Source: Deltaproteobacteria bacterium
Lineage (GTDB): Bacteria; Myxococcota_A; Polyangia; JAAYKL01
Assembly: GCA_030595125.1 (NCBI GenBank)
Contig: JAUVDV010000005.1
Span: 1 to 64,000, forward strand
DNA: 64,000 nt
Direction of reading: 5' to 3'
Within the stretch, counting starts at the first letter, position 1, and each line of letters begins with the position of its first letter. This document shows positions 10,887-49,075 of this stretch, in pieces. Position numbers and translations under genes: made by a program. The notes below the pieces were generated by a model. The model saw only the letters and a list, made by a program, of their open reading frames with translations, searched no databases and was not told where the DNA came from.

Positions 10887-11750
10887 CTAAACCTTCACCT
10901 TCTTTGCCACGGCCATGAAGAAGTCCCGCGACCAGATCTCTACCAGGGATGTGTCGGGGAGAAACCTCGCAACGTCAGCCCTGGCCCTGTCCACGTTCAG
11001 CGAGGCAATCTTCTCCATCAGGATCTTCCGGAACCTGTCCTCCGTGAGGATCCCCTTCTCGGAGTAGTGGCCACTGCGGCGCATGCGGGTCTCGAGGTGG
11101 TGCAAATCGAGTTTCGTACCACGCCCGACGTACCAGATGAAATCGTACCAGTCTCTGCCCTTGATCCTGCTTTTCCAGCTACGGCAGAGAAGCGCGTGCA
11201 TCTTCCCGGCAAAGAGGCAGGGAGGTGTGTAGGCGCGCACGGAGAAGGGGATGGGTTGTAGACAGAACCTGGTCTCAGTGTCGAAATCTGGTGGCGGATC
11301 CGTATCGACTTCAAACTTGATCTTGAGCACCTGGTTGGCAGGAATGCCGGCGGCGACCTCCTCGCCGGCCTCTATGATCAGAAGCTGTTCCCTCGTGTTT
11401 GCCTTCAAGAATGCGGACTCGATGGCGCTCCGTGTGGACTTTTTTTTTGTTTCTATCTTTGCCGTGAAACCCCAGGAGGAGAGTTCCTTTTCCACGTAAG
11501 GGTGGTATCGCTCAAGGTTGAAGGAGTCATCAGGGGAGAGCGTGGAGAAGTCCATGTCCTCGCTGAAGCGGTCCAGCCCATAGAGGATGCGAAGCGCCGT
11601 GCCGCCGTAGAAGGCTGCATTTTCGAAGAACTTCCCGCGCCAGAGGCCGAGCAGGGCTATCTCCTGAAGAACTTCGCGAAGGGCGTTGAGGTTTTCGTCT
11701 GCGCTTCTTCGGGGATACCTGGCAAGCATATCCGCAAGTGCCGGGTTCAT
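10887..11750 (-). CDS. AbiEii-type nucleotidyltransferase toxin
   Basis: A 287-residue member of the AbiEii/AbiGii toxin family, the toxic half of type IV toxin-antitoxin and phage-exclusion pairs. The nucleotidyltransferase signature is visible as FYGGTALRILYGLDRFSEDMDF, with the GG(T/S) motif and the metal-binding Asp-x-Asp (DMDF); downstream CLFAGKMHALLCR and RDWYDFIWYV fit the family's second half. The ATG overlaps the TGA of the antitoxin gene (ATGA at 11747-11750), so the two are translationally coupled. Characterised relatives modify tRNA or bind GTP; the target here is unknown. Confidence 0.9.
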   Translation of the reverse strand: MNPALADMLARYPRRSADENLNALREVLQEIALLGLWRGKFFENAAFYGGTALRILYGLDRFSEDMDFSTLSPDDSFNLERYHPYVEKELSSWGFTAKIETKKKSTRSAIESAFLKANTREQLLIIEAGEEVAAGIPANQVLKIKFEVDTDPPPDFDTETRFCLQPIPFSVRAYTPPCLFAGKMHALLCRSWKSRIKGRDWYDFIWYVGRGTKLDLHHLETRMRRSGHYSEKGILTEDRFRKILMEKIASLNVDRARADVARFLPDTSLVEIWSRDFFMAVAKKVKV

Positions 11751-12388
11751 TGTCTCCTCCTGATCTTGTGCAAGAGCTTCGCGCAGTAGGCGACCTTGCG
11801 GGAGCCGAGCGCATCGGCGAGTTGATGAAGGAATCCAGGGTCCAGTTCCCGAAAAGCCGATTCGTTCACGCGGAGATCTTCGAAGAGATAACTCTCGGCG
11901 TCGCCCAGGGAGCTTATGCTTGCCGACCTGTCCTCCCTCACCTTATCAGCGAGAGCTCGCTCTGGAGACGCAATAAGGAAGGAGGAGTCTCCCTGTTCGA
12001 CCCGGCTCATTCCGAGATGGAAGGAGCCCCGAGGCGCGCGGCGGTATACGAAAGTACCCACCGGGGTCTTGAACTCCCTTGCGCGTCCCGTGGTCACCGA
12101 AGTCAATTGCTCAACGCGTTCGGGGATGAGGCCATGGTAGGAGAGGGCGTAATCCAGGGAGAGGAAGGAGGGGCCGTAGACCAGGTTGGCCAGGAGTTCT
12201 CGGGAATAGGGGCGGAGTCGATAATCCTCACCGAATACGTAAATGCCCTTTTTCACGCGGACGATGACGCCCTTTCGCAGGAGCGACGTGACCTTTCCAC
12301 TCGCGTTCGCATACTCCCCAAGCGCCGCCATGAGCGCCGGGTAATCGAACTCCTCTCTGCCGATATGCCTGCGAAGCCGGATATCCAT
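11747..12388 (-). CDS. AbiEi-type antitoxin / transcriptional autorepressor
   Basis: A 213-residue antitoxin of the AbiEi family. The N-terminal ~70 residues form a winged-helix-like region (DYPALMAALGEYANASGKVTSL... KGIYVFGEDYR), followed by the family's C-terminal part (YGPSFLSLDYALSYHGLIPE, TTGRAREFKTPVGTF). AbiEi proteins neutralise AbiEii and bind inverted repeats in their own promoter. A strong inverted repeat lies just upstream at 12393-12443. The spacing between repeat and ATG is only 4 bases, so I see no strong ribosome-binding site and the message may have a very short leader. Confidence 0.88.
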   Translation of the reverse strand: MDIRLRRHIGREEFDYPALMAALGEYANASGKVTSLLRKGVIVRVKKGIYVFGEDYRLRPYSRELLANLVYGPSFLSLDYALSYHGLIPERVEQLTSVTTGRAREFKTPVGTFVYRRAPRGSFHLGMSRVEQGDSSFLIASPERALADKVREDRSASISSLGDAESYLFEDLRVNESAFRELDPGFLHQLADALGSRKVAYCAKLLHKIRRRQ

Positions 12389-13215: not shown

Positions 13216-13884
13216 TCAGGGAACCTCTGCGTGAAACGTCGCTTCCAAGTGGGCTGTGACATCGCCCTTTTGCAGGGTGGCGTCCAGGTCGCCCTCTACC
13301 AGGCCGCCGGATGACAAATTCACTGTGGTAAGGGTCACTGTGCCGTTGTTGGTGTCGCCATAATAAAATCCCTGTGCGTCCGCCGGGAGGGATGAGTCGT
13401 TTTCAGAGAGGGTCACGTATGCGCCGGTGTAGTCGGGGGTGAGATTGTGCACGCCGGTTGTCATGGCATTTGGGATGTAGAGTGCCCAGATGGTGTAGCC
13501 TCCGCCTTGCTGGTAGCGGATCATGGTGTGGGTGCCCACGTCGTTGATGTCGCAAAAGTAGCAGTTGTTCAGATTGACGGTTTCATCGACGGTTGTGCTC
13601 TGGTAGTGGATTGTGGTGTCGGCCCACAGGGGGTCCGTGTCGCTGTCGGTATCCGTATCCGTGTCGGAGTCGGTATCGGAGTCGGTATCGGAATCGGTGT
13701 CCGTGTCGGAGTCGATGTCTGTGTCCGAATCGGTATCGGAGTCGCTGTCGGAGTCGCTATCGGAATCACTGTCGGAGTCGCTATCCGAATCGCTGTCGGC
13801 ATCCCCGCCGCCGACGCTGCTATCGTCCGAGCACCCGCCACAAACCAGCACGGTTGCAAGCAACATTAAAAGCAAACACTTCAT
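13216..13884 (-). CDS. Lipoprotein with long Asp-Ser/Asp-Thr linker
   Basis: A 222-residue exported lipoprotein (lipobox LVCGGC, Cys18). Residues 28-84 are an uninterrupted Asp-Ser/Asp-Thr repeat, giving a long, very acidic, flexible stalk. The remaining ~135 residues are beta-rich with one close Cys pair (NCYFCD) and show no family I recognise; unlike the other D/T lipoproteins here they have no leucine-rich-like units. The stalk probably holds the globular head away from the membrane, and dense Asp may bind calcium (inference). AGGTAGGGCA precedes the ATG, and the shared extended -10 element lies 30 bases upstream. Confidence 0.8.
13633..13803 (-). repeat. Coding hexamer repeat (GAY + Ser/Thr codon)
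   Basis: About 28 copies of a degenerate 6-base unit encode the Asp-Ser/Asp-Thr linker of the lipoprotein gene. Comparable but shorter arrays lie at 345-404, 22313-22504, 26112-26198, 51096-51218 and 57776-57829. Because the unit is six bases, length changes keep the reading frame. Confidence 0.8.
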
Positions 13885-21562: not shown

Positions 21563-22591
21563 CTACGGGGGACAGTTCGCCGGAACGGGCGTGCAAGTGT
21601 CGTCGAGGTTGTCGACGACATTGATCGACGAGGGTAGGCTGGTGAACTGGTCCAGCAGGTCACATGCCTCGCAATCGGGCAGGACGTCGTTTTCCACAAC
21701 GTATAACCATCCCGCCGAGGTGATTCCGCTCAAACCATCAAGGGTGGTGAGGGCGTTGTTCGTTTCGATGTATAATATCCAACCCACCGAGGTGATGTTG
21801 TTCAGTCCGTCCATGTCGGTAAGAGCCATGTTGTGGATGATGCGTAAATCCCCAACCACGGAGGTTATCCCGCTCAGGCCGTCCAGGTTGGTGAGGGCGG
21901 CGTTGTACTCGATCCTCAAGTCCCAGCCCACGGAGTTGATCCCGCTCAGGCCGTCCAGGTTTGTAAGGGTGGAGTTAATGCCGACAAGCAGGTACCCGCC
22001 CAGTGAGGTTAACCCGCTCAGTGCATTCAGGTCTGCAAGGTCGTAATTGGCCCACAGATGCAAGGCGCCGGCTATCGAGGTGAGGCCGTCAAGCCCGTCC
22101 AGGGTTGTAAGGGAGGTGCAATACCTTATCTTCAAGTCCCCGCCCACCGAGGTGAGACAATCCAACTCGCTCAGGTCGGTGCATGTATCGCAATAGATGT
22201 CCAGGGTTCCCGAGATAGAGGTGTATCCCGCGAGGGTTGTGACATCCCATTGCGTGCCGATAGTGAAATTTCCGCTGTACGTCCCGAGATTGCATTCGAG
22301 CGGACCGGTGTCGGTGTCTGGGCCGGTATCGGTGTCACTGTTGGTGTCTGTATCGGTATCAGTGTCTGTATCGGTGTCAGTATCTGTATCGATGTCACTG
22401 TCAGTGTCGGCATCGGAGTCGCTATCCGCATCCGAATCGCTATCCGCATCCGAATCGATGTCCGTATCTATATCCGTGTCACTGTCGGAGTCCGCACCGG
22501 TATCAGGCTCAACGTCTGGTACGACTTCTTGCTGGGACCAGCATCCCACCGAGATTGCGGCTGCCAATCCGACAATGATGAATTGTCTCAT
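21563..22591 (-). CDS. Surface lipoprotein with Asp-Ser/Asp-Thr linker and leucine-rich-like repeats
   Basis: A 342-residue paralogue of the lipoproteins at 258, 50379 and 57641. Lipobox ISVGC places the lipid on Cys17. The acidic linker spans about residues 30-93 and is followed by [15 protein letters not shown], very close to the equivalent PVECNLGEYSGDFEI of the protein at 258. Repeat units ([19 protein letters not shown]) fill residues 115-300, and the tail has the paired-Cys [13 protein letters not shown]...[10 protein letters not shown]. The ATG at 22591 is preferred to an in-frame GTG 15 bases upstream because GGCGGGG sits in front of it and the signal peptide begins there. It converges on the GT-C gene with 3 bases between stops. 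Confidence 0.85.
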
Positions 22592-22621
22592 CACCCCGCC
22601 TTTCACCTCGTGCCCAACATC

Positions 22622-26015: not shown

Positions 26016-26825
26016 ATGTGGAAAAACGCGCTAGCTGTGATCGTGTTGGTTTTCTTCGCAACCGCGTGCGGTAACGATGCCGCTCCGGTTATATCGGACG
26101 GCGGCACCGCCGATACGGACACGGACACCGACACAGACGCGGATGGAGACACAGACGCGGACTCTGACACCGATGCCGACACTGACACGGATTCGGACGG
26201 CGGCGTCAATCCCGGTGAGCTCATCGGGACGATTCGCGACTTTCACGACACGCACCCGGATTTCGAGGCGGAGCTGGGCGCGGAGACCGGCATTGTCGAG
26301 GATGTGTTGGGGAGTGACGGCAAGCCCGTGTACGCGGGAGGAGCCGGCACCGTCACCACACACGGGGAGGCCGCGTTCGACCAGTGGTACAACGACACGG
26401 TGGACGTGAACATGTCAACGCAGTGGACCATCCAGCTCGTGGAGGGCACGGACGGGGTGTGGGTGTTCGACGACCAGGAGTTCTTCCCCATCGACGGGAT
26501 GCTCTTCGGAGAGGAGGGTAATCCGCACAACTATCACTTCACCTACGAGCTTCACACGCAGTTCACCTACAATGGCGGTGAGGTCTTCCGCTTTACGGGC
26601 GACGACGATCTGTGGGTGTTCATCAACAACCGCCTGGCCATCGATCTCGGCGGGGTTCACGGTCAGCTCACGCAGGAAGCGGATCTCGACGACCAGGCCG
26701 CGGATCTGGGTATTTCAACAGGAAACGTTTACACCCTGGATTTCTTCTTCGCCGAGCGCCACCTTGTCGAGTCCCATTTCAGGATCGACACCACGATAAG
26801 CGACCTGGCCCCCCCCATCGATTAG
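26016..26825 (+). CDS. Fibro-slime domain lipoprotein
   Basis: A 269-residue lipoprotein (lipobox FFATAC, Cys18). An Asp-Thr linker covers about residues 33-61. The rest fits the fibro-slime domain: GTIRDFHDTHPDFEAELG near its start, then the PA14-like core with EVFRFTGDDDLWVFINNRLA followed by IDLGGVHG and the closing LDFFFAERH. Fibro-slime domains occur in large surface proteins of Myxococcota and Fibrobacterota and are thought to bind carbohydrate or calcium; the acidic GDDD loop would be the metal site. GGGAGGGAC precedes the ATG. The gene stands alone between a palindromic repeat and bioB. Confidence 0.88.
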   Translation: MWKNALAVIVLVFFATACGNDAAPVISDGGTADTDTDTDTDADGDTDADSDTDADTDTDSDGGVNPGELIGTIRDFHDTHPDFEAELGAETGIVEDVLGSDGKPVYAGGAGTVTTHGEAAFDQWYNDTVDVNMSTQWTIQLVEGTDGVWVFDDQEFFPIDGMLFGEEGNPHNYHFTYELHTQFTYNGGEVFRFTGDDDLWVFINNRLAIDLGGVHGQLTQEADLDDQAADLGISTGNVYTLDFFFAERHLVESHFRIDTTISDLAPPID

Positions 26826-26910: not shown

Positions 26911-27894
26911 ATGACCGGTCTGTTTGCAAAGGACGCTCGGGGGATACTCGATCTGGACGGGACACTCCTGTTCAACGCCATGGCCGAGGCGAATCGGTTG
27001 CGAGAACTGCGACACGGGCAATCGATCAACCTGTGCTGGATAGTCAACGCCAAGAGCGGCGGGTGCGATCAGAACTGCAATTTCTGTTCTCAATCCACTC
27101 AATCCACGGCCGATATCTCCGAGTACGACCTCATCGGCGCGGACGAGATCGTCGCGGCTGCCGAGGAGGCATCCAGGAACGGGGCGGTGAGGTTCAGCAT
27201 CGTCACATCGGGCGGGGCAGTGGAAGAAGGGCGCGAACTCGCCACGATACTGGAATCCGTGGGTCGCATCGCGGACGAAACGGCTTTAAACGTCTGCGTG
27301 TCCCTGGGCTGCGTCGATCGTTACGTGCTTGCCGCCCTGCGCAAGGCGGGAGTCAAGCGTTATCATCACAATATGGAAACGGCGGAGTCCTACTGGTCCA
27401 GGGTGTGCACCACCCGCACGTACGAGGAGTCCCGCCGGGTCATTCGGGAGGCCCAGGAAGAGGGGTTGGAAGTTTGCAGCGGGGGTATTTTCGGAATGGG
27501 TGAAAGCCTGGACCAGCGCATCGAGCTCCTCGATGAGGTCAAGAGCCTCGGGGTCGAGTCAGTGGCCATCAACTTTTTTGTTCCAATCCCCGGGACGCCG
27601 TTCGCCGAGATACAACCCATCGCGCCCCTGGAGTGTCTGAAGATTGTGATTGCGGCCCGGATGATGATGCCCAGGCGGGATATCCGTGTATGCGGAGGGC
27701 GTGAGAAAAACGTCCGGGACCTGCAGTCCATGCTGGTTACTTCGGGTGTGTCCGGGTTGATGATCGGCGGATATCTGACTACCCCGGGGCGTTCCGCGCA
27801 AGAAGATCTGGCCATGATTCGTGATCTGGGGCTCACCCCGGACACCATTCCCCAGGGCAGAACTACAATTACTATGAATCCCGACAGGCGATGA
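26911..27894 (+). CDS. bioB: Biotin synthase, variant auxiliary-cluster site
   Basis: A 327-residue radical-SAM enzyme inserting sulphur into dethiobiotin. The SAM-binding [4Fe-4S] site is GGCDQNCNFC (Cys52/56/59) after NAKSG. Aligned by eye to the well-known E. coli enzyme, the second and third auxiliary-cluster Cys are kept (LNVCVSLG, Cys129; EVCSGG, Cys189) and the Arg ligand lies in CGGRE (Arg264). The first auxiliary Cys position is Ser96 in RFSIVTSG. That pattern suggests an auxiliary cluster other than the classical [2Fe-2S], as in biotin synthases of strict anaerobes. The ATG follows TTGAGGGG. It overlaps the ThiF-like gene by ATGA; other biotin genes are absent. Confidence 0.88.
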   Translation: MTGLFAKDARGILDLDGTLLFNAMAEANRLRELRHGQSINLCWIVNAKSGGCDQNCNFCSQSTQSTADISEYDLIGADEIVAAAEEASRNGAVRFSIVTSGGAVEEGRELATILESVGRIADETALNVCVSLGCVDRYVLAALRKAGVKRYHHNMETAESYWSRVCTTRTYEESRRVIREAQEEGLEVCSGGIFGMGESLDQRIELLDEVKSLGVESVAINFFVPIPGTPFAEIQPIAPLECLKIVIAARMMMPRRDIRVCGGREKNVRDLQSMLVTSGVSGLMIGGYLTTPGRSAQEDLAMIRDLGLTPDTIPQGRTTITMNPDRR

Positions 27895-28622
27895 CGGAGA
27901 GCAGATACAATCGCCAGGAGCTGGTCAGGGGCGTCGGGGTCGACGGGCAGCGGCGCCTGCGGGAGGCAAGGGTTGCCGTTGTGGGAGTGGGCGCGCTCGG
28001 TTGCGCCATCAGTGACCAGATCGTCCGGGGCGGGGTGGGCTATCTGAGGCTCATCGATCCGGATATTCCGGAGATCTCCAACCTCCAGCGCCAGGTGCTC
28101 ATAGACGAGCGCGATGTGGAGCAACACACTCCCAAGGCCCGCGCAGCCGCAGCGAAACTCGTTGTAGCGAACAGCGAGGTGGAGATCGAGGCTCACGTGG
28201 ATCTTCTCGACGAGGAGAACGCTGCGTCCCTGCTCGACGGCGTGGATCTCGTGCTCGACGGAACCGACAACTTTTCGGCTCGCTACCTGATCAACCGTAC
28301 CTGTCGACAGGCGGGCATACCGTGGATCTTCGGCGGTGTTCTGGGATCTTCCGGGATGTCCTTTCCTGTGCTCACGAACGGGCCTTGCCTTCACTGTGCG
28401 CTGGGACCGCAGCCGCCTGTGGGCAAGACGCCTACCACTGCGCAGATGGGGGTGCTGTGCTCCATTGTGGCGACCATCGCGTCCCTGGAGGTGGTTCGCG
28501 CGCTCAAGTTGCTATGCGGTCACGAGATTTTACCGGAGCTGGCAGTGGTGGATCTCTGGAACGAGACCATGCGCACGGTCGCCGTGGATCGCGATCCCCG
28601 GTGCCCCGTATGTGCGAAGTAG
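27891..28622 (+). CDS. ThiF/MoeB/HesA-family E1-like adenylyltransferase
   Basis: A 243-residue E1-like enzyme that would adenylate the C-terminus of a ubiquitin-like sulphur carrier (ThiS or MoaD type). Visible motifs are YNRQELVRGVG, the nucleotide loop VVGVGALGC, DPDIPEISNLQRQVL (Asp and Arg contacting ATP), DGTDNFSARYLIN and the zinc-binding pairs CLHC and CPVC. Length equals simple ThiF/MoeB proteins with no rhodanese domain. The ATG overlaps the bioB stop, so it is translationally coupled to a sulphur-inserting enzyme. No ThiS/MoaD-like gene is visible, so thiamin, molybdopterin or a biotin-linked role cannot be told apart. Confidence 0.88.
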   Translation: MTESRYNRQELVRGVGVDGQRRLREARVAVVGVGALGCAISDQIVRGGVGYLRLIDPDIPEISNLQRQVLIDERDVEQHTPKARAAAAKLVVANSEVEIEAHVDLLDEENAASLLDGVDLVLDGTDNFSARYLINRTCRQAGIPWIFGGVLGSSGMSFPVLTNGPCLHCALGPQPPVGKTPTTAQMGVLCSIVATIASLEVVRALKLLCGHEILPELAVVDLWNETMRTVAVDRDPRCPVCAK

Positions 28623-29722: not shown

Positions 29723-31132
29723 ATGTCCAGACTGATTTTACTGATGGGGGTTGTGGTTTTGTTTGCAGCGCCGGGTTGTAGCGGGGAGGGCAGTTCTACT
29801 GTCGAGGGTGAGATCGGACCGCAAGGGGAAATCGGGCCGCAAGGAGTGGAAGGGCCCGCCGGACCGCAAGGGGAAATCGGGCCACAGGGAGTGGAAGGGC
29901 CTGCCGGATCGGAGGGGCCTGCCGGTGCTTCCGGAGTAGACGGAGCGGACGGCTTGCCTGGCCCCCAGGGGATTCAGGGTGTTCCCGGAACAGCCGGAGT
30001 GGACGGAGTAAACGGAGTAGACGGGGTTGACGGAGTGAACGGTCTTGGCCTCGTGTGGCTCGGGACCTTTGCGGCTCCTCCGGGGGCGCCTTCGGAAAAC
30101 GACGCTTATTACAATTCGACTGATGGCATCGCGTATGTTTTTGATAGCGTCACCTGGCAAATCCTGGCCAAAGATGGATTGGACGGATTGGACGGAGTGG
30201 ACGGAGTCCAGGGACCGCAGGGGATTCAGGGTGTTCCTGGAACTGCCGGAGTAGACGGCGCCGACGGGGCAGACGGGTCCGACGGCTTGCCGGGGCCACA
30301 GGGGGCTGCGGGGCCGGCCGGGCCTCCTGGGAGCGTGTGGGGCGAGCCAGCCGCCGTCTTCGCCGGGTTTACCACTGGATTGTACGACGGAAATCAAAGC
30401 GGTCATTCAGGTATGAACGCTGTCTGCGACTCGGAGTTCGTCGGCAGTCATTTGTGTCACGTGTCGGAGTACCTCCTTTGCAACTCGGCCACCCCGGCGC
30501 CCGCGCTGGGCGCGTGGGTTGCCGACAGTTGCGGGGTGTCGGGCTTTGGAACGGAGACTACCTTGATAGGCAATCACCTGGCGGGCAAGAGCATCTCCGT
30601 ATCCACCTACCGGAATTGTTACAATTGGACCATCAACGACGCCACCTACACTGGTAATGCAATCACCACTGAGCGGACCACGTACACCGGCAAGAACTGC
30701 GATGTTCCGAGACCTCTGGCGTGCTGTAGCACACCTTATCGGGAGGTCTTTTCAGGCTTCACGAGCACATCGTACACAGGCGACATGGGCGGGCAAGCGG
30801 GAGTACATTTCCTTTGCGGGCTCGATTTTCCCGGGAGTCACATGTGCCACATGGCGGAATACTATCGGGCAAATACAACCAATTTGCCGCCGGCCGACGG
30901 CGCCTGGATCGACAAGAGCGCCGGCTTCAAGATGGGCGCGGGCGGCACCTTCACCACCACCGTCTGCGCCAGCTCCGAGCTGGGACGCTCCATTGCATGC
31001 AGTACCTACAATAACTGCTATAACTGGACCACCAGCGACAACACCTACAGTGGCAACACGGTGACAGAGTTGAATGTCACCTACACCGGCAAGAACTGCG
31101 ACACCCCGCGCCCCATCGCCTGCTGCGAGTAG
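29723..31132 (+). CDS. Collagen-like lipoprotein with duplicated Cys-rich head
   Basis: A 469-residue lipoprotein (lipobox FAAPGC, Cys19). Two Gly-X-Y blocks (about residues 31-106 and 151-203: GPQG, GPAG, GVDG, GLPG units) are separated by a ~45-residue globular insert (LVWLGTFAAPPGAPSEN) like those in phage-tail/collagen proteins. The C-terminal half is two copies of a ~115-residue Cys-rich domain, each with FSGFT...Y.G, GSH.CH.(S/A)EY, CYNWT and a PRP(L/I)ACC end, resembling DUF1554-type lectin-like heads. Gly-X-Y repeats should trimerise into a rod, presenting the heads outward. ACGGAGGTGATTC before the ATG is an excellent ribosome-binding site. Ligand unknown. Confidence 0.88.
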   Translation: MSRLILLMGVVVLFAAPGCSGEGSSTVEGEIGPQGEIGPQGVEGPAGPQGEIGPQGVEGPAGSEGPAGASGVDGADGLPGPQGIQGVPGTAGVDGVNGVDGVDGVNGLGLVWLGTFAAPPGAPSENDAYYNSTDGIAYVFDSVTWQILAKDGLDGLDGVDGVQGPQGIQGVPGTAGVDGADGADGSDGLPGPQGAAGPAGPPGSVWGEPAAVFAGFTTGLYDGNQSGHSGMNAVCDSEFVGSHLCHVSEYLLCNSATPAPALGAWVADSCGVSGFGTETTLIGNHLAGKSISVSTYRNCYNWTINDATYTGNAITTERTTYTGKNCDVPRPLACCSTPYREVFSGFTSTSYTGDMGGQAGVHFLCGLDFPGSHMCHMAEYYRANTTNLPPADGAWIDKSAGFKMGAGGTFTTTVCASSELGRSIACSTYNNCYNWTTSDNTYSGNTVTELNVTYTGKNCDTPRPIACCE

Positions 31133-34663: not shown

Positions 34664-35551
34664 ATGGTTGAACGGGCTGTACAACCGCTCAAAGAAAACG
34701 ATGAAGTGACTCCGGAACGGATCCGGAAGATCATCGACAAGCACGAAGGCGCCCTGGGTGGTCTGATCGCTATTCTGGAAGGGGTCCAGGCGCAATTCGG
34801 ATATCTTTCCGAGAAGGCGTTGGGGATAGTGGCGCAAGAGACCGGTCGTTCCCTCGTCGATATATACGGCGCGGCGACCTTCTATCATTCGTTCACCCTG
34901 AAGCCACGGGGCAAGCACGTCGTTTCCGTATGCGTGGGCACGGCCTGTCACGTGCGTGGCGCGCCCGCTATCGTGAGCGAGTTTCAGCAGCGGCTTGGAA
35001 TAGAAGTGGACGAAACCACGGAAGACAAGGAGTTCACTCTGAAGACGGTGAACTGCCTCGGGGCATGCGCGCTCGGGCCTGTCGCCGTGATCGACGGCCG
35101 GTATTTTTCCAAGCTGAAAAAATCCGACGTCGAGAAGCTGCGCCACGATGCCCAGGAGGGCTATGACAAGGCTGAAGGCGAAGAAGACCCGAGAATCTTC
35201 CCGGTCGATGTCGGCTGTCCGTTTTGCAATCACAGCTTCATGGACAGTGGTTTCTACATCAACGGCCGCCCGTCTATTCGGGTAACAGTGTCGTTTGGTG
35301 ACAAGCACGGCTGGTTCAGGATGTCCTCGCTGTACGGCAGGTACGACATCTTCTCCGAATACGATATTCCCGTTGACACGGTATCCCACTTTTTCTGCCC
35401 GCATTGCCATGCGGAGTTGATCGGCTCCTGGGAATGTTCATCGTGCGAGGCGCCGATGGTGCCGATGCTTGTTCGTGGAGGAGGAACGATTCGGATTTGC
35501 TCTCGCAGCGGATGTACAGGATCGGACGGCCACATGTTGGATTTGAGGTGA
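34664..35551 (+). CDS. NuoE-like [2Fe-2S] thioredoxin-fold subunit with zinc-ribbon-like extension (StnA-like)
   Basis: A 295-residue subunit. Residues 15-160 are the NuoE/HndA fold: four cluster ligands Cys90, Cys95, Cys131 and Cys135 in CVGTACHVRG and CLGACALGP hold a [2Fe-2S] cluster. A C-terminal extension of about 120 residues carries Cys pairs CPFC, CPHC, CSSC and a final CSRSGC, which look like zinc-ribbon or rubredoxin-like knuckles and are absent from standard NuoE. GGGAGGT precedes the ATG. It is followed by the NuoF-GltD fusion and NuoG-N-like genes. The order and domain set match the Stn-type transhydrogenase, where this subunit passes electrons next to the FMN subunit. Confidence 0.88.
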   Translation: MVERAVQPLKENDEVTPERIRKIIDKHEGALGGLIAILEGVQAQFGYLSEKALGIVAQETGRSLVDIYGAATFYHSFTLKPRGKHVVSVCVGTACHVRGAPAIVSEFQQRLGIEVDETTEDKEFTLKTVNCLGACALGPVAVIDGRYFSKLKKSDVEKLRHDAQEGYDKAEGEEDPRIFPVDVGCPFCNHSFMDSGFYINGRPSIRVTVSFGDKHGWFRMSSLYGRYDIFSEYDIPVDTVSHFFCPHCHAELIGSWECSSCEAPMVPMLVRGGGTIRICSRSGCTGSDGHMLDLR

Positions 35552-35632
35552 GCGGCGCGGTTTCGTGATTTTTAGAAACAATTGCGAAAAAAACAGCGCG
35601 TGCCGAAAAACAGAGAAGCGGAAGTTGAAGAC

Positions 35633-38600
35633 ATGAAGCAAATTCAATCAATCGACGATTTTGGAATGCTGAGTAGTCGTTTGCACGGAGACAGGGATAT
35701 GGAGATCCCTACAATAGTCATCTCGGCCGGTACGTGCGGGCAAGCATGCGGCGCCAATGACTTAATACGGATAGTCAAACGTGAAATTATTTCAAACGGG
35801 CTACTGGGAAAGGTCGGGTTGCGAGTTACGGGGTGTCACGGATTTTGTCAGATAGAGCCGTTGATGTTGATAGAGCCGGCGGGGACGCTATATCCAAATG
35901 TTGAGATGGATGATGTGGCGAGAATTGTCGAGGCCGTTGTCAACAACGACATAGTTGAGGAGCTTCTTCCCAGAGATCCGGAAAGCGGGAACCCCATAAC
36001 ACAGGAAAGCGATCTGCCTTTTTATAGAAATCAAAGAATGACGATATTGGAGCGAAATAAGAAAATAGATCCAATCAAGATATATGATTACGTCGTGTGG
36101 GATGGGTACAAGGGGCTGGCTTCATTGCTGGCCAAATCCGAGCCGAAAGAGGTGGTCGAGGAGGTCAAACGTTCCGGTATAAGAGGTCGCGGCGGCGCCG
36201 GGTTTTCCACCGGAATGAAGTGGGAGTTCCTGTCCAGACAGCCCGGCGACAAGGGCAAATTTCTGGTATGCAATGCGGATGAAGGCGATCCCGGCGCCTA
36301 CATGGATCGCAGCATCCTCGAGGGAAATCCGCACAGCATTATCGAGGGGATGATCATCGGGGCGTACGGCACAGGTGCCACCAGGGGCGTCATATATGCG
36401 CGTGCCGAATATCCTCTGGCGATAAAGCATCTGACCATCGCGCTTCGGCAAGCTCGCGATCTGGGTGTTCTGGGCGAGAATATATTGGGGACCGGGTTCT
36501 CCTTTGACATCGACATAGTGAGAGGCGCTGGGGCGTTTGTTTGCGGCGAGGAGACCGCGCTCATACGCTCGATCGAAGGAAAGATGGGCGAGCCGCGTCA
36601 GCGACCCCCGTTTCCCATAACAAAAGGTATCCACGGCAAGCCGACCGCGATCAACAATGTCGAGACATGGGCCAATGTCCCCGTGATCTTCAGGCTAGGG
36701 GCAGGGGAGTATGCAAAGGTAGGAACAAAGGGCAACTCAGGTACCAAGATCTTCAGCCTCGTGGGCAAGATCAAGAACACCGGGCTGGTCGAGGTTCCCA
36801 TGGGCACGACCATCGGAGAAATTGTTTTCGACATCGGTGGCGGATCACCCGGAGATGCCAGGATCAAGGCCGTGCAGACGGGAGGGCCTTCGGGCGGCTG
36901 CATCCCCGTTGAAAAATTCGATCTTCCCGTAGATTACGACAGCCTTGCCAAGGCCGGATCGATCATGGGCTCGGGCGGCATGATCGTGATGGACGAGAAC
37001 ACCTGCATGGTCGACGTGGCCAAGTATTACATGAACTTCCTCAAGGACGAGTCGTGCGGCAAGTGTTTCTCATGTCGCAAGGGCACCCAGCGGATGTACG
37101 AGATCCTGGACGGCATCTCAAAGGGAGAAGGTACACTTGATGATCTGGACCTCCTCGAGGAGCTGGCCATAGCGGTCAAGGACTCGACAATGTGTGGCCT
37201 GGGACAGACCGCGTCCAACCCGGTCCTGAGCACGCTCAAGTATTTCACGGAGGAGTACCGGCGCCACATCGTGGACAAGAGATGCGACGCCCTCGTATGC
37301 AAGGAGCTGACAGGAGCGCCTTGCCAGGCGACGTGTCCGGTGGGAACCGAGGCCTGGCGTTACATTGCGCATATCGGAAAGGGAGAGTTCGAGAAGGCCT
37401 ATCTGGCCATCAGAGAACCGAACCCGTTCCCGTCCGTTTGCGCGCGCGTCTGCAATCACCCGTGCGAATCGAGATGCCGCGCGGGGGAGAGCGGCGGCGA
37501 GCCGATCGCGATAAGGGCTCTCAAACGTTTTGTTACAGACCGTGTCGATCCGGGCGCCTACAAGCCGATGCGCCTCGTGAAAAGCGATCCCAAGATGCCA
37601 GGGATCGCGATTGTAGGCTCCGGGCCGGCCGGTTTGACTGCGGCCCATGGGTTGTCGCTTATGGGATATAAGGTCACGATTTTCGAAGCAGAGGATAGTC
37701 CCGGAGGCATGTTGACGGCGGCCATTCCGGCCTATCGCCTGCCTCGCGAGGTGCTGCAAAAAGAGATCGATTCGCTCATCGACGAGAATGTCACGCTCGA
37801 ATGCAACCGCGCGTTGGGCCGTGACTTCACCCTCCAGGAGCTGTTGGACGACGATTACAAGGCGGTCTACCTGGCGATGGGCGCGCACAAGAGCAGACGA
37901 CTCGGGCTGGCGGACGAAGACGCAAAGGGTGTGCATCCGTCTATCAATTTCCTGAAGGCGTTCAATCTGCGTGGCGAGAGTCTGGTAGAAGGCCGTGTCG
38001 GGGTCGTGGGCGGCGGCAACTCGGCGATCGACGCAGCCCGGGTGGCGCTTCGGCAGGAAAAAGTGGACAGCGTCACGATTCTGTATCGCAGAACCCGCGA
38101 GGAGATGCCCGCTTTCCCCGAGGAGATAGACGCCGCGCTCGAAGAGGGGATAGAGCTTGTTACACTGGTCACCCCTGCAAAGATCCTCTCCAGGGACGGG
38201 CAGCTGGAAGGAATCGAATGTCTCAGGAACGAGCTCGGTGCTTACGACTCGAGCGGTCGCAGAAGGCCGATCCCGATCGATGGGTCGGAGTACACAATCC
38301 CGCTCGACAACCTGATCGTGGCCATCAGCGAAAGTTCCGATCTGGACTGCGTTGAGGGGTCCGGCGAAGCAAAGATCGACACAGCTGACAATGACCGAAT
38401 CAAGGTTAACCCCAAAACGCTCTGCACAAACCTGCCAGGCGTATTTGCCGGCGGGGACGTTACGACCGGTCCGTCCACCGTGGTAGAGGCCGTCGCTGCG
38501 GGCAAGAAGGCCGCAGTTGTGATCGACCGTTACGTCCGAGGTGACGAACTTGAACAACCTGCTTCTCCGGTTGTTCCCAAGATCTACATAGAGCCCGGGG

Positions 38601-38812
38601 CGTCTGTCGATGAAGAGAGCGAAGCATCGCGGCCTCGGCAGCCGGAGATTTCCGCAGAGTCGAGAAAACGCGGTTTCGAAGAAGTGGAGCTGTCACTGAC
38701 AGAGGAGGATGCGATTCGCGAATCATCCAGGTGTCTAAGGTGCGATCTTGAATTCACCAGGCCGAATCAGGATGAGGTTGAAAAATCGACAGCAGAAAGC
38801 AAACCGGCATGA
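35633..38812 (+). CDS. NuoF-GltD fusion flavoprotein (StnB-like)
   Basis: A ~1059-residue fusion. Residues 25-110 are a thioredoxin-like [2Fe-2S] domain (Cys35/39/68/72). Residues 125-545 are NuoF/HydB-like: FMN/NADH-binding GRGGAGFSTGMKWEF, GEETALIRSIEG and a [4Fe-4S] site SCGKCFSC plus Cys521. Residues 551-970 are GltD/NfnB-like: two Fe-S motifs (CQATCPVG; CARVCNHPCESRC), FAD loop VGSGPAGLTAAHGL and NAD(P) loop VGGGNSAIDAARVALR. A last CLRC motif ends the chain. Pairing an NADH-type FMN site with an NfnB-type FAD site suggests flavin-based electron bifurcation among NADH, NADPH and ferredoxin. The start at 35633 has GGAAG upstream; an upstream TTG in frame is possible. The stop overlaps the next ATG (ATGA). 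Confidence 0.9.
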   Translation: MKQIQSIDDFGMLSSRLHGDRDMEIPTIVISAGTCGQACGANDLIRIVKREIISNGLLGKVGLRVTGCHGFCQIEPLMLIEPAGTLYPNVEMDDVARIVEAVVNNDIVEELLPRDPESGNPITQESDLPFYRNQRMTILERNKKIDPIKIYDYVVWDGYKGLASLLAKSEPKEVVEEVKRSGIRGRGGAGFSTGMKWEFLSRQPGDKGKFLVCNADEGDPGAYMDRSILEGNPHSIIEGMIIGAYGTGATRGVIYARAEYPLAIKHLTIALRQARDLGVLGENILGTGFSFDIDIVRGAGAFVCGEETALIRSIEGKMGEPRQRPPFPITKGIHGKPTAINNVETWANVPVIFRLGAGEYAKVGTKGNSGTKIFSLVGKIKNTGLVEVPMGTTIGEIVFDIGGGSPGDARIKAVQTGGPSGGCIPVEKFDLPVDYDSLAKAGSIMGSGGMIVMDENTCMVDVAKYYMNFLKDESCGKCFSCRKGTQRMYEILDGISKGEGTLDDLDLLEELAIAVKDSTMCGLGQTASNPVLSTLKYFTEEYRRHIVDKRCDALVCKELTGAPCQATCPVGTEAWRYIAHIGKGEFEKAYLAIREPNPFPSVCARVCNHPCESRCRAGESGGEPIAIRALKRFVTDRVDPGAYKPMRLVKSDPKMPGIAIVGSGPAGLTAAHGLSLMGYKVTIFEAEDSPGGMLTAAIPAYRLPREVLQKEIDSLIDENVTLECNRALGRDFTLQELLDDDYKAVYLAMGAHKSRRLGLADEDAKGVHPSINFLKAFNLRGESLVEGRVGVVGGGNSAIDAARVALRQEKVDSVTILYRRTREEMPAFPEEIDAALEEGIELVTLVTPAKILSRDGQLEGIECLRNELGAYDSSGRRRPIPIDGSEYTIPLDNLIVAISESSDLDCVEGSGEAKIDTADNDRIKVNPKTLCTNLPGVFAGGDVTTGPSTVVEAVAAGKKAAVVIDRYVRGDELEQPASPVVPKIYIEPGASVDEESEASRPRQPEISAESRKRGFEEVELSLTEEDAIRESSRCLRCDLEFTRPNQDEVEKSTAESKPA

Positions 38813-39486
38813 TTAATTTGACGATCAACGGGTTGAAGGTTTCGATCGAGGACGGATCGACGGTTCTTGAAGCCGCGCAATTCCTGGGTTTTCCCATCCC
38901 CACGCTCTGTCACATGGAAGGCCTCGAGCCGTACGGCGCCTGCCGCCTCTGTCTGGTGGAAATCGGAAAAGCGCCGAATGCAAAATTGGTTTCTTCGTGC
39001 ACGTATCCGGCGCAAGAAGGACTCGTCGTTCGCACGGCGTCCTCGCGCGTCTTGAAGGCGCGCAAGATGGTCATCGAATTGCTTCTGGCGAGCTGCCCTC
39101 AATCGAAGGTGATTCAGGACATAGCGGCGGCTCACGCGGTGAATCAGCAACGCTTCAAGCAGGAGCACGAGGACTGCATCCTTTGCGGGCTGTGCGTGCG
39201 GATGTGCAAGGAGCAGATGATGGCTGGCGCAATCGGCTTTCGGGGCAGGGGCGAGAACCGTAGTCTGGGTACGCCGTTCGATGCGAAATCCGAGGAGTGT
39301 CGTTTTTGCGGCGGCTGTATGTATGTCTGCCCTGCGTGTCAGCTCAGATGCACCTTTAACGAACCGGAAAAGGCGATCTGCGGTGGTTGTCAGAACCTTA
39401 GCCCCCCTTGCGTGGAAGAAGAAAAGTTCGACGACATGATGTGCTACATGTCGCCCTGCGTCGCCTGTGAAATCGATAAGTCGTGA
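38809..39486 (+). CDS. NuoG N-terminal-like ferredoxin subunit (StnC-like)
   Basis: A 225-residue Fe-S protein. Residues 1-80 are a plant-type [2Fe-2S] ferredoxin domain with ligands Cys34, Cys45, Cys48 and Cys64 (LCHMEGLEPYGACRLC...SSC). Residues ~117-190 hold two [4Fe-4S] motifs (CILCGLCVRMCK; CRFCGGCMYVCP) with additional C-terminal Cys (CGGC, CYMSPCVAC) that may carry a further cluster. It lacks the molybdopterin-like or hydrogenase catalytic domain that follows in NuoG or HydA, so it should serve as the ferredoxin-facing electron entry or exit of the complex. Its ATG overlaps the stop of the NuoF-GltD fusion, implying matched synthesis. Confidence 0.88.
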   Translation: MINLTINGLKVSIEDGSTVLEAAQFLGFPIPTLCHMEGLEPYGACRLCLVEIGKAPNAKLVSSCTYPAQEGLVVRTASSRVLKARKMVIELLLASCPQSKVIQDIAAAHAVNQQRFKQEHEDCILCGLCVRMCKEQMMAGAIGFRGRGENRSLGTPFDAKSEECRFCGGCMYVCPACQLRCTFNEPEKAICGGCQNLSPPCVEEEKFDDMMCYMSPCVACEIDKS

Positions 39487-39509
39487 TTTTCAAAAAGGAG
39501 TAAACCGCA

Positions 39510-41090
39510 ATGTCATTTTCAAAAGTCAACCGTTCTGCGGCAACACTGAGCAAGAACAGAACCGAGGATTCAATCCATCCGGGTTCGGGTATGTGCACCA
39601 CCTGCGTGGACGGTTGCATCGGCATGTGTGAAATCGGTAAGTCCGCGTATCGTGGTCACGAGGTGATCTATCCCCAGCCGTTTGGAGTGATAACAACGGC
39701 GTCTGAAAAGGATTACCCGGTGGACTACTCGCACCTCAACATAATCGGTGGAGTCGTCGGCGCCCAGGGCATCGAAGCGGACAGCGACAAGGCGGTCTTC
39801 CCGGCCGTGGATCTCGAGGTGCGCTTTGGCCACGACGACGGATTGAAGTTCCGTTTGCCGATCATGATCCCGGGCATCGGATCGACCAACATCGCAAAGA
39901 ACAACTGGGAAGGTCTCGCCATCGGAACGGCCCTCGCCGGCACCGGCCTGACCATCGGAGAGAACGTCGTGGGCATGGATCCCGAGTCGGTCTTCAAGAA
40001 CGGCAAGGTTGTGAGCGCGGTTGATCTCAAGAGGCGGGTCAAGCTGTTCAAGGATAACCAGATCGACGGCTACGGCGCGATTGTCGTCCAGGCCAATGTG
40101 GAAGACACGAGGTTGGGCATTCAGGAGTACGCCATCAATACCCTGGGCGCCGAGGTCGTGGAATTGAAATGGGGCCAGGGCGCCAAGAACATCGGCGGCG
40201 AGGTCAAGATCCGCGATTTGAAAAAGGCCCAGATGCTCTACGATCGCGGTTATGTGGTGTTGCCCAACCCAACCGATCCCACTGTGATCGAGGCCTTCAA
40301 GCGCGGAGCATTCAAGGAGTTCGAGCGCCATTCCAGGGTGGGCATGGTCACCGAAGAGGGCTTTGCAAAGCGAGTGGAAGAACTGCGCAAGGCCGGCGCA
40401 AAGTACATCTTCCTGAAAACCGGCGCGTACAGGCCTGAGGCGCTGGCGATGGCTATCTCCTTCGCATCGAAATACAAAATTGATTTGCTCACGGTGGACG
40501 GGGCCGGCGGCGGTACGGGAATGAGCCCTTGGAGGATGATGAACGAGTGGGGCATCCCCCCGGTGGAACTACACTCGCTTCTCTATCAATACGCCAAGCG
40601 CCTGGACGACAAGGGAGAGCACGTGCCCGCGATCGCAGTGGCCGGCGGTTTCACATTCGAGGACCAGATGTTCAAGGCCCTGGCCATGGGCGCGCCCTAT
40701 GTAAAGCTGGTTGGCATGGCCCGCGCTCCCATCGCGGCCGCCATGGTGGGCAAGACGATCGGCAAGGCGATCCGCGAGTACAACCTGCCGGTATACGTGG
40801 AGCGGTTCGGCAACAACATCGACGAGGTCTTCGTGACCGCCGCACATCTTCGCAAGGAGATGGGCGACAAGGAGTTCGACAGCCTCCCGACCGGGGCGAT
40901 CGGGCTCTACACGTACTACGAGCGCCTCGGGCAGGGCCTGCGCCAGCTCATGGCCGGAAGCCGCAAGTTCGCTCTGAAGTACATGACGCGGGACGACCTC
41001 ACGTGCCTGACAAAGGAATCCGCCGAGATCACCGGCATCCCTTACGTGATGGATCTCGACAAGAAGAGAGTGGACGAAATTCTCGGTTAA
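39510..41090 (+). CDS. FMN-binding glutamate-synthase-like protein (GltB central domain, no glutaminase domain)
   Basis: A 526-residue protein equal to the FMN/Fe-S synthase domain of GltB, as in the archaeal-type stand-alone subunit. Core motifs are IMIPGIGSTNIAKNNWEGLAIG, VVELKWGQGAKNIGGE (the GQGAK motif), LTVDGAGGGTGMSPW and AVAGGFTFEDQMFKALAMGA. The N-terminus has an unusual four-Cys motif CTTCVDGCIGMC (Cys29/32/36/40), a possible [4Fe-4S] site. There is no N-terminal amidotransferase domain to release ammonia from glutamine. AAAGGAG precedes the ATG. As last gene of the sigma-54 operon, its electrons could come from the GltD-like part of the preceding fusion. Whether it makes glutamate is unproven. 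Confidence 0.9.
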   Translation: MSFSKVNRSAATLSKNRTEDSIHPGSGMCTTCVDGCIGMCEIGKSAYRGHEVIYPQPFGVITTASEKDYPVDYSHLNIIGGVVGAQGIEADSDKAVFPAVDLEVRFGHDDGLKFRLPIMIPGIGSTNIAKNNWEGLAIGTALAGTGLTIGENVVGMDPESVFKNGKVVSAVDLKRRVKLFKDNQIDGYGAIVVQANVEDTRLGIQEYAINTLGAEVVELKWGQGAKNIGGEVKIRDLKKAQMLYDRGYVVLPNPTDPTVIEAFKRGAFKEFERHSRVGMVTEEGFAKRVEELRKAGAKYIFLKTGAYRPEALAMAISFASKYKIDLLTVDGAGGGTGMSPWRMMNEWGIPPVELHSLLYQYAKRLDDKGEHVPAIAVAGGFTFEDQMFKALAMGAPYVKLVGMARAPIAAAMVGKTIGKAIREYNLPVYVERFGNNIDEVFVTAAHLRKEMGDKEFDSLPTGAIGLYTYYERLGQGLRQLMAGSRKFALKYMTRDDLTCLTKESAEITGIPYVMDLDKKRVDEILG

Positions 41091-48405: not shown

Positions 48406-48816
48406 TTAGAGCCCCTGGATTGGAACCTTACAGCGGCGGGCGGCCTTGCGGATTGCCTTGTCCATCGTGGCGATCGGCAGGCGACGCCGCATCGCCAGGT
48501 CGAGATAGGAAGCGTCGTAGGAGGTCAGGCCGGTGTCGCGGGCGAGCGACAGGATTTCGCCCATGATGCGGTCTCGCGACTCGATCTCGACATGGATCGG
48601 CAACCGGTGCAGGAGCGCGAGAAAGGCGGTGCCGTCCGCCCTGGATAATCGCTTGCCGCGTTCCGCCGCGAGAATCACGTTGGCCACCTCCAGCGGCCAG
48701 ATGGACGGCGCCACGGCCTCCTCGGCTGCCAGCATGCCGAGCGCGTCGTCGGCGTATCTGGACGACTCGTCCTCAAAACACCATGCCATTACCACGGAGT
48801 TGTCGACTACGAACAT
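48406..48816 (-). CDS. PIN-domain toxin, VapC-like
   Basis: A 136-residue PIN-domain ribonuclease. Acidic residues expected at the active site are visible: Asp5 in MFVVDNSVVMAW, Glu in PLEVANVILAAE, Asp in LTSYDASYLDLA and Asp in IATMDKAIRKAA. Such toxins cleave tRNA or rRNA when freed from their antitoxin. The ATG follows AGAGGGCAGG and directly abuts the stop of the antitoxin gene (antitoxin TAA at 48817-48819), giving a compact two-gene toxin-antitoxin operon. It lies between glutamate dehydrogenase and an intergenic repeat. Confidence 0.93.
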   Translation of the reverse strand: MFVVDNSVVMAWCFEDESSRYADDALGMLAAEEAVAPSIWPLEVANVILAAERGKRLSRADGTAFLALLHRLPIHVEIESRDRIMGEILSLARDTGLTSYDASYLDLAMRRRLPIATMDKAIRKAARRCKVPIQGL

Positions 48817-49056
48817 TTATCGCCTGCCCTCTTCTATCATCTCTTTGATTGATGATTCGCCCAGGCTCCGTCCCTTGCGGAAAGCCCTGAGCTTTTCGAT
48901 TACAATAGTGGGGTCTTCTACAATAGACGGTTCGGACGGCTGCAAAACAGCCACCGGGACGCCGTGTTTCGTGATAGTTATTCGCTCCCCCTGCGCAACT
49001 CGTTTGAGAAGCTTGGGCAGATGGGTCTTGGCTTCGTATGCGCCGATCGTGTCCAT
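48817..49056 (-). CDS. Phd/YefM-type antitoxin
   Basis: A 79-residue antitoxin. MDTIGAYEAKTHLPKLLKRVAQGERITITKHGVPVAVLQP is the typical Phd/YefM DNA-binding and dimerisation half (quoted here in two parts by sense: MDTIGAYEAKTHL, ITITKHGVPVAVL). The remaining tail is charged and would wrap the VapC-like toxin. The ATG at 49056 follows GGAGGAAATCC, which excludes a five-codon longer frame. A candidate operator of two 11-base direct repeats lies just upstream, consistent with autoregulation. Confidence 0.9.
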   Translation of the reverse strand: MDTIGAYEAKTHLPKLLKRVAQGERITITKHGVPVAVLQPSEPSIVEDPTIVIEKLRAFRKGRSLGESSIKEMIEEGRR

Positions 49057-49075
49057 GGATTTCCTCCGCAACCTG

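What the first reader, a model, noticed from the sequence alone, without database searches (positions are those of the whole stretch)
26911..28622. Biotin synthase lacking one classical auxiliary-cluster Cys, coupled to an E1-like sulphur-activation gene
Ser96 stands where E. coli BioB has Cys97, while Cys129, Cys189 and Arg264 are kept and an extra Cys261 lies near the Arg. This resembles biotin synthases of strict anaerobes that use another auxiliary cluster as sulphur source. The ATGA overlap with a ThiF/MoeB-like gene raises the idea of carrier-based sulphur delivery to rebuild that cluster.
Basis: partly seen in the sequence, partly recalled or inferred. Interest (0 to 1): 0.6.

Follow-up and report, generated by a model that had tools for sequence, protein, structure and literature searches.

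The report
Anaerobe biotin synthase beside sulphur-carrier activator
The window holds an ordinary "type II" (anaerobe-type) biotin synthase gene overlapping the cell's only ThiS/MoaD-activating E1 gene; the pairing is confined to one genus, but close relatives of this biotin synthase almost always sit beside some sulphur-transfer gene, so the open question of how this enzyme gets its sulphur back becomes testable.

Summary
26911-27894 encodes BioB and 27891-28622 a ThiF/MoeB-type E1 with a 4-base ATGA overlap. Ser96 replaces E. coli Cys97. It also missed Cys42 and Cys166, which complete the type II cysteine pattern seen in the V. parvula and B. obeum crystal structures (8vdw, 8vcw). So this is a type II ([4Fe-5S]) BioB, already a known kind. 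The bioB-thiF pair occurs in only three species of one genus among 290 class genomes, and in none of 79 other bioB loci. The genome's thi operon (nadA-thiG-thiH-thiS) has no thiF and the other E1-fold proteins are a TcdA-like enzyme and an anti-phage protein, so this gene is most simply the thiamin E1. What is unexpected is the clade: 20 of 21 BioBs in one supported branch have larE, mnmA or thiF next door, often overlapping. Carrier-fed sulphur for BioB stays possible (about 12%) but unproven; co-expression of sulphur-using vitamin genes explains the data more cheaply.

The parts
26911..27894 (+). bioB, type II biotin synthase, 327 aa (radical SAM + BATS domains)
27034..27036 (+).
   Evidence: invariant in alignments A2 and A5
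27064..27087 (+). CxxxCxxC (Cys52, Cys56, Cys59) of the radical-SAM [4Fe-4S] cluster
27196..27198 (+). Ser96 codon, at the place of E. coli Cys97
27295..27297 (+). Cys129 codon (E. coli Cys128)
27406..27408 (+). Cys166 codon (E. coli Ile165; Cys in both type II structures)
27475..27477 (+). Cys189 codon (E. coli Cys188)
27685..27687 (+). Arg259 codon, the true equivalent of the E. coli cluster ligand Arg260
27691..27693 (+). Cys261 codon, extra cysteine two residues after Arg259; common in the lineage, Ala in 8vdw and 8vcw
27891..27894 (+). ATGA stop/start overlap of bioB and thiF, conserved in two sister species
27891..28622 (+). thiF-like E1 (ThiF/MoeB family), 243 aa; the only ThiS/MoaD-type E1 found in the genome
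28437..28439 (+). Thr183 codon of ThiF, where E. coli ThiF (Cys184), MoeB (Cys187) and the longer relatives have Cys

Best explanation
bioB encodes a type II biotin synthase: a radical-SAM enzyme whose second cluster is a four-iron cluster held by Cys42, Cys129, Cys189 and perhaps Cys166, with Arg259 nearby; an extra sulphide on it is the atom put into dethiobiotin (cluster type inferred from the homologues' structures). thiF encodes the cell's only E1 for ThiS/MoaD-type sulphur carriers and mainly serves thiamin-thiazole synthesis. The two are co-transcribed (inferred) because this lineage groups genes that draw on the same cysteine-derived sulphur pool (nadA, thiG, thiH, thiS, nifS, larE, mnmA, bioB, thiF) in shifting combinations; ThiF does not need to act on BioB.
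For: Type II: Cys42/Ser96/Cys129/Cys166/Cys189 is the pattern of 8vdw (V. parvula) and 8vcw (B. obeum), not of E. coli; 8vdw is the best hit by sequence and fold (TM 0.91). ThiF role: genome G000 has nadA-thiG-thiH-thiS without thiF; the other two PF00899 proteins are TcdA-like and an anti-phage 6A-MBL protein. Grouping: in 20 of 21 BioBs of one clade the neighbour is larE, mnmA or thiF; ThiF orthologues elsewhere sit with nadA (same 4-base overlap, same convergent lgt), thiG-thiH, nifS or mnmA. bioD is present at another locus.
Against: No expression data; co-transcription rests on the overlap. The MAG is about 95% complete, so a second thiF could be missing, though both sister genomes lack one too. 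Cluster type in this protein was not measured. The loss of the acceptor Cys in ThiF is unusual for a thiamin-type ThiF and leaves room for another role.
Confidence: 0.66

Rival explanations
1. Carrier-fed BioB: ThiF adenylates a ThiS-like carrier (the thi-operon ThiS or the orphan carrier on contig C14), cysteine desulfurase sulphur makes its thiocarboxylate, and the thiocarboxylate hands sulphide to the open iron of BioB's auxiliary cluster, regenerating the [4Fe-5S] form after each turnover, as TtuB does for TtuA.
For: TtuB passes sulphur from its thiocarboxylate to the [4Fe-4S] cluster of TtuA (PMC7138817), and T. maritima LarE is proposed to use a [4Fe-5S] cluster (PMC9283937), so the chemistry has precedents. 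The genome holds three GG-ending carriers and one E1; the C14 carrier has no other visible partner and tracks ThiF and this BioB in 290 genomes (9 and 10 of 13 hits). BioB's clade is tied to sulphur-transfer genes.
Against: The pair is limited to one genus. BioBs of the same clade occur in genomes without this ThiF orthologue (e.g. G008, G009, G010, where only weak, TcdA-range hits remain). ThiF has an ordinary thiamin job. The co-occurrence follows phylogeny and is not independent evidence.
Confidence: 0.12
2. Chance neighbours: a rearrangement in the ancestor of the genus put thiF behind bioB and nothing selected for it.
For: Only three closely related species have it (91-95% identity), and other neighbours (lgt, lipoprotein and sensor-kinase genes) are also conserved there.
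Against: The 4-base overlap is kept, the same thiF-lgt block in a sister genus carries nadA in front with the same overlap, and nearly every BioB of the clade has a sulphur-transfer neighbour.
Confidence: 0.15
3. LarE-type loading is the ancestral arrangement: the larE product, an ATP-dependent sulphur transferase with a CxxC...C cluster site, supplies sulphide to type II BioB in this clade, and the window genus has replaced that link by thiF.
For: larE directly precedes bioB, often overlapping, in 14 of 21 clade members over several families and one planctomycete-labelled MAG; most of these LarEs show the three-Cys pattern of the [4Fe-4S] LarE (PMC9283937).
Against: LarC of nickel-pincer cofactor synthesis is present in most of these genomes, so LarE already has its textbook job; G000 still has a larE elsewhere; G003 has the BioB but no larE hit over the cut-off.
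Confidence: 0.07

Closest known systems
Type II biotin synthase (Lachowicz et al. 2024; PDB 8vdw V. parvula, 8vcw B. obeum)
   Same: Cys42, Cys129, Cys166, Cys189 present, no Cys at the Cys97 place, Arg259 kept; same fold (TM 0.91 and 0.85); anaerobic setting
   Different: Extra Cys261 next to Arg259 (Ala in both structures); gene overlaps an E1 gene
E. coli ThiF and MoeB (1zud, 1jw9)
   Same: Fold, nucleotide-binding and Zn CxxC...CxxC residues
   Different: Thr in place of ThiF Cys184 / MoeB Cys187; scores below the curated cut-offs of both equivalog models, so ThiF versus MoeB role is not decided by sequence
TtuA/TtuB with its E1 (Thermus tRNA thiolation)
   Same: An E1-activated thiocarboxylate carrier feeding a four-iron cluster is the parallel for the rival idea
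   Different: TtuA is a PP-loop tRNA thiolase, unrelated to BioB; no interaction of ThiF or ThiS with BioB has been shown

Membership tests
Biotin synthase (TIGR00433) | Match over the curated model cut-off; CxxxCxxC; BATS domain | tested here: met
   354 bits versus 225; Pfam BATS and Radical_SAM; Cys52/56/59
Type II biotin synthase | No Cys at the E. coli Cys97 place, with Cys at 42, 129, 166 and 189 as in 8vdw and 8vcw | tested here: met
Type II biotin synthase | [4Fe-5S] auxiliary cluster used as sulphur source | not testable with these tools
   cluster type reported for the class in PMC11138216 and PMC11099021; the primary paper PMC10813225 was not held, so the ligand list is inferred from alignment
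Type I biotin synthase ([2Fe-2S], E. coli) | Cys97, Cys128, Cys188 and Arg260 all present | tested here: not met
   Cys97 is Ser96
ThiF/MoeB sulphur-carrier E1 | ThiF fold, GxGxxG, conserved Asp and Arg, Zn cysteines | tested here: met
   PF00899 213 bits; alignment A3; fold hits 1zud, 1jw9
Thiamin ThiF equivalog (TIGR02356) | Score over the equivalog cut-off; acceptor Cys (E. coli Cys184) | tested here: not met
   201.8 bits versus 275; Thr183 at that place. This lowers the name, not the likely role
Carrier-to-cluster sulphur delivery (TtuB/TtuA-like) | Physical transfer of sulphur from a thiocarboxylated carrier to the enzyme's cluster | not testable with these tools
   only gene context available

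The most novel reading that the evidence does not exclude
Type II biotin synthases of this clade are not sacrificial but catalytic: a dedicated sulphur-transfer partner (E1 plus thiocarboxylate carrier in the window genus, LarE-like or MnmA-linked elsewhere) reloads the extra sulphide on their four-iron cluster. To my knowledge this would be the first carrier-fed biotin synthase.
Probability: 0.12. Interest if true: 0.78.

Novelty: new member of a known kind. Interest (0 to 1): 0.42.

Why it matters
How biotin synthase regains sulphur after each turnover has long been disputed, and for type II enzymes nothing was found in the library about the donor. A clade whose bioB genes nearly all lie beside a sulphur-transfer gene gives named partners (ThiF with its carriers, LarE, MnmA-linked desulfurase) to test with simple deletions and reconstitution. 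If the partners prove irrelevant, the clusters still show that these anaerobes organise vitamin genes by shared sulphur supply.

Tried and rejected
Arg264 as cluster ligand: rejected, Arg259 aligns with E. coli Arg260. Riboswitch control (e.g. TPP): no Rfam match at gathering score in the window or the thi/bioB loci scanned. General bioB-thiF pairing across bacteria: rejected, 0 of 79 other loci. LarE as a BioB-only protein freed from nickel-pincer synthesis: weakened, LarC is present in most of these genomes. ThiF as part of a phage-defence E1-E2 system: only weak shared-fold matches. A literature search for LarE with biotin synthase found nothing; the search for BioB with ThiF/ThiS was blurred because 'ThiS' matches the word 'this'.

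Full report
Observation. The window carries bioB at 26911-27894 (+) and a thiF-like gene at 27891-28622 (+), sharing ATGA. NCBIfam names the first BioB (TIGR00433, 354 bits, cut-off 225); the second is a clear ThiF-family E1 (PF00899, 213 bits) that stays below the curated cut-offs of every ThiF and MoeB equivalog. Both genes, the overlap and the key residues are conserved in two sister species (91-95% identity). The upstream flank is not shared by all three: G001 differs from about 60 bases before the gene.

Residues. An alignment of BioBs with E. coli 1r30 and the type II structures 8vdw and 8vcw maps window Cys42 to E. coli Ser43, Ser96 to Cys97, Cys129 to Cys128, Cys166 to Ile165, Cys189 to Cys188, Cys261 to Ser262 and Arg264 to Arg265, so Arg259 is Arg260. 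That Arg260 is the unusual [2Fe-2S] ligand of the E. coli enzyme is established knowledge. Cys42 is invariant and Cys166 nearly so among the type II set. Cys261 occurs in many relatives but not in the two structures. The AlphaFold model (pLDDT 92) matches 8vdw, the biotin synthase of V. parvula, with TM 0.91, then 8vcw from B. obeum, then E. coli. Reviews state that biotin synthases of most anaerobes use a [4Fe-5S] cluster (PMC11099021, PMC11138216). No haem-copper oxidase was found in this genome or in 11 of the 13 other family genomes. I conclude that this is a type II BioB; the cluster itself is inferred, not measured.

Distribution of the pair. Among 290 genomes of the class, 23 have a BioB this close and 17 a ThiF this close; the two are adjacent only in the three species of the window's genus. 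In 79 bioB loci from many phyla none has thiF next door. The shared presence of ThiF and this BioB (12 genomes, 1.35 expected) follows phylogeny and is weak evidence.

What ThiF is for. The genome has three PF00899 places: this gene, a TcdA-like gene and the E1 part of an anti-phage 6A-MBL system. It has a thi operon, nadA-thiG-thiH-thiS, that lacks thiF, plus an orphan ThiS-like gene on C14 and a MoaD-like gene on C178 in a redox-enzyme cluster, all ending in GG. So one E1 must serve at least ThiS. In the window genus and in G006 and G007 the E1 lacks the acceptor cysteine (Thr183; PTT versus PTC) and the C-terminal extension of about 95 residues found in the longer relatives; the zinc cysteines are kept. 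In E. coli ThiF that cysteine forms an acyl disulphide with ThiS, while MoeB does without it (general knowledge), so a MoeB-like mode is likely.

The wider pattern. Orthologues of this ThiF sit behind nadA (G006, same 4-base overlap and same convergent lgt as in the window), with thiG-thiH (G011), nifS (G069) or mnmA (G046, G017). BioB shows the same habit. In one supported branch of the BioB tree (21 rows, SH-aLRT 95) 14 have larE immediately upstream, three have mnmA, three have thiF, and only G006 has none. Typical orders are nadA-thiG-thiH-thiS-(nifS)-larE-bioB and nadA-larE-bioB-mnmA. By genus, 11 of 15 have such a neighbour; even at a generous 2% chance per gene that is p about 1e-16, though genera are not independent. 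No paper in the library mentions LarE together with biotin synthase. LarC is present in most of these genomes, so LarE probably still serves the nickel-pincer cofactor.

Mechanism. Shown: gene identities, residues, overlap, missing thiF in the thi operon, clade-wide neighbourhood. Inferred: co-transcription, [4Fe-5S] chemistry, ThiF serving ThiS. The cheapest account is shared sulphur supply and co-expression. The bolder account, a thiocarboxylated carrier reloading BioB's cluster, has a direct precedent in TtuB/TtuA (PMC7138817) and a cousin in LarE of T. maritima (PMC9283937), but the relatives that lack this ThiF argue that it is at most a local solution.

Origin. A family member (G011) is the public MAG contig JAABTR010000563.1, identical over 5184 bases and placed in Myxococcota by NCBI, so the window comes from an uncultured, probably anaerobic member of that phylum.

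Noticed in passing
L078:9152-15198; L117-L120, L130-L135, L147: Conserved cluster nadA-thiG-thiH-thiS-(nifS)-larE-bioB-(mnmA); larE directly upstream of type II bioB in 14 of 21 clade members, not described in the library searched.
   Followed up: partly
L118 (G010), L122 (G009): Genomes of the same family with thiG-thiH-thiS but no ThiF found beyond TcdA-range hits: what charges ThiS there is unclear.
   Followed up: no
L082:6879-7952 and L070:11392-12375: Second BioB paralogue (about 38% identical) with His at the Cys42 place and Cys at the Cys97 place, next to larE, cysK and rrf2 (L082) or in an rrf2-cysK-larE-nifS-mnmA-thiF-cysK-metB cluster (L070).
   Followed up: partly
L129:6818-7012: Orphan ThiS-like carrier (FVFPLLIVRING...MSGG), found in 13 of 290 class genomes, mostly those with this BioB or ThiF; target unknown.
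   Followed up: partly
L081:3395-6816: Anti-phage 6A-MBL system (MBL-fold protein plus E1-JAB cap2_3 protein) in the same genome (NF058523 646 bits, NF058524 406 bits).
   Followed up: partly
window 29723-31132, 26016-26825, 21563-22606, 13216-13884: Lipoprotein-like genes with collagen-like GPQG repeats or long DTDTDSD-type acidic linkers, several per window.
   Followed up: no
window 34664-41090: Run of genes reading by eye like a NuoE/NuoF-type, ferredoxin-containing (NADH or hydrogenase) cluster, in keeping with an anaerobe.
   Followed up: no
window 10887-12388 and 48406-49071: Gene pairs that look by eye like toxin-antitoxin modules (an AbiEii/AbiEi-like pair and a PIN-domain pair).
   Followed up: no
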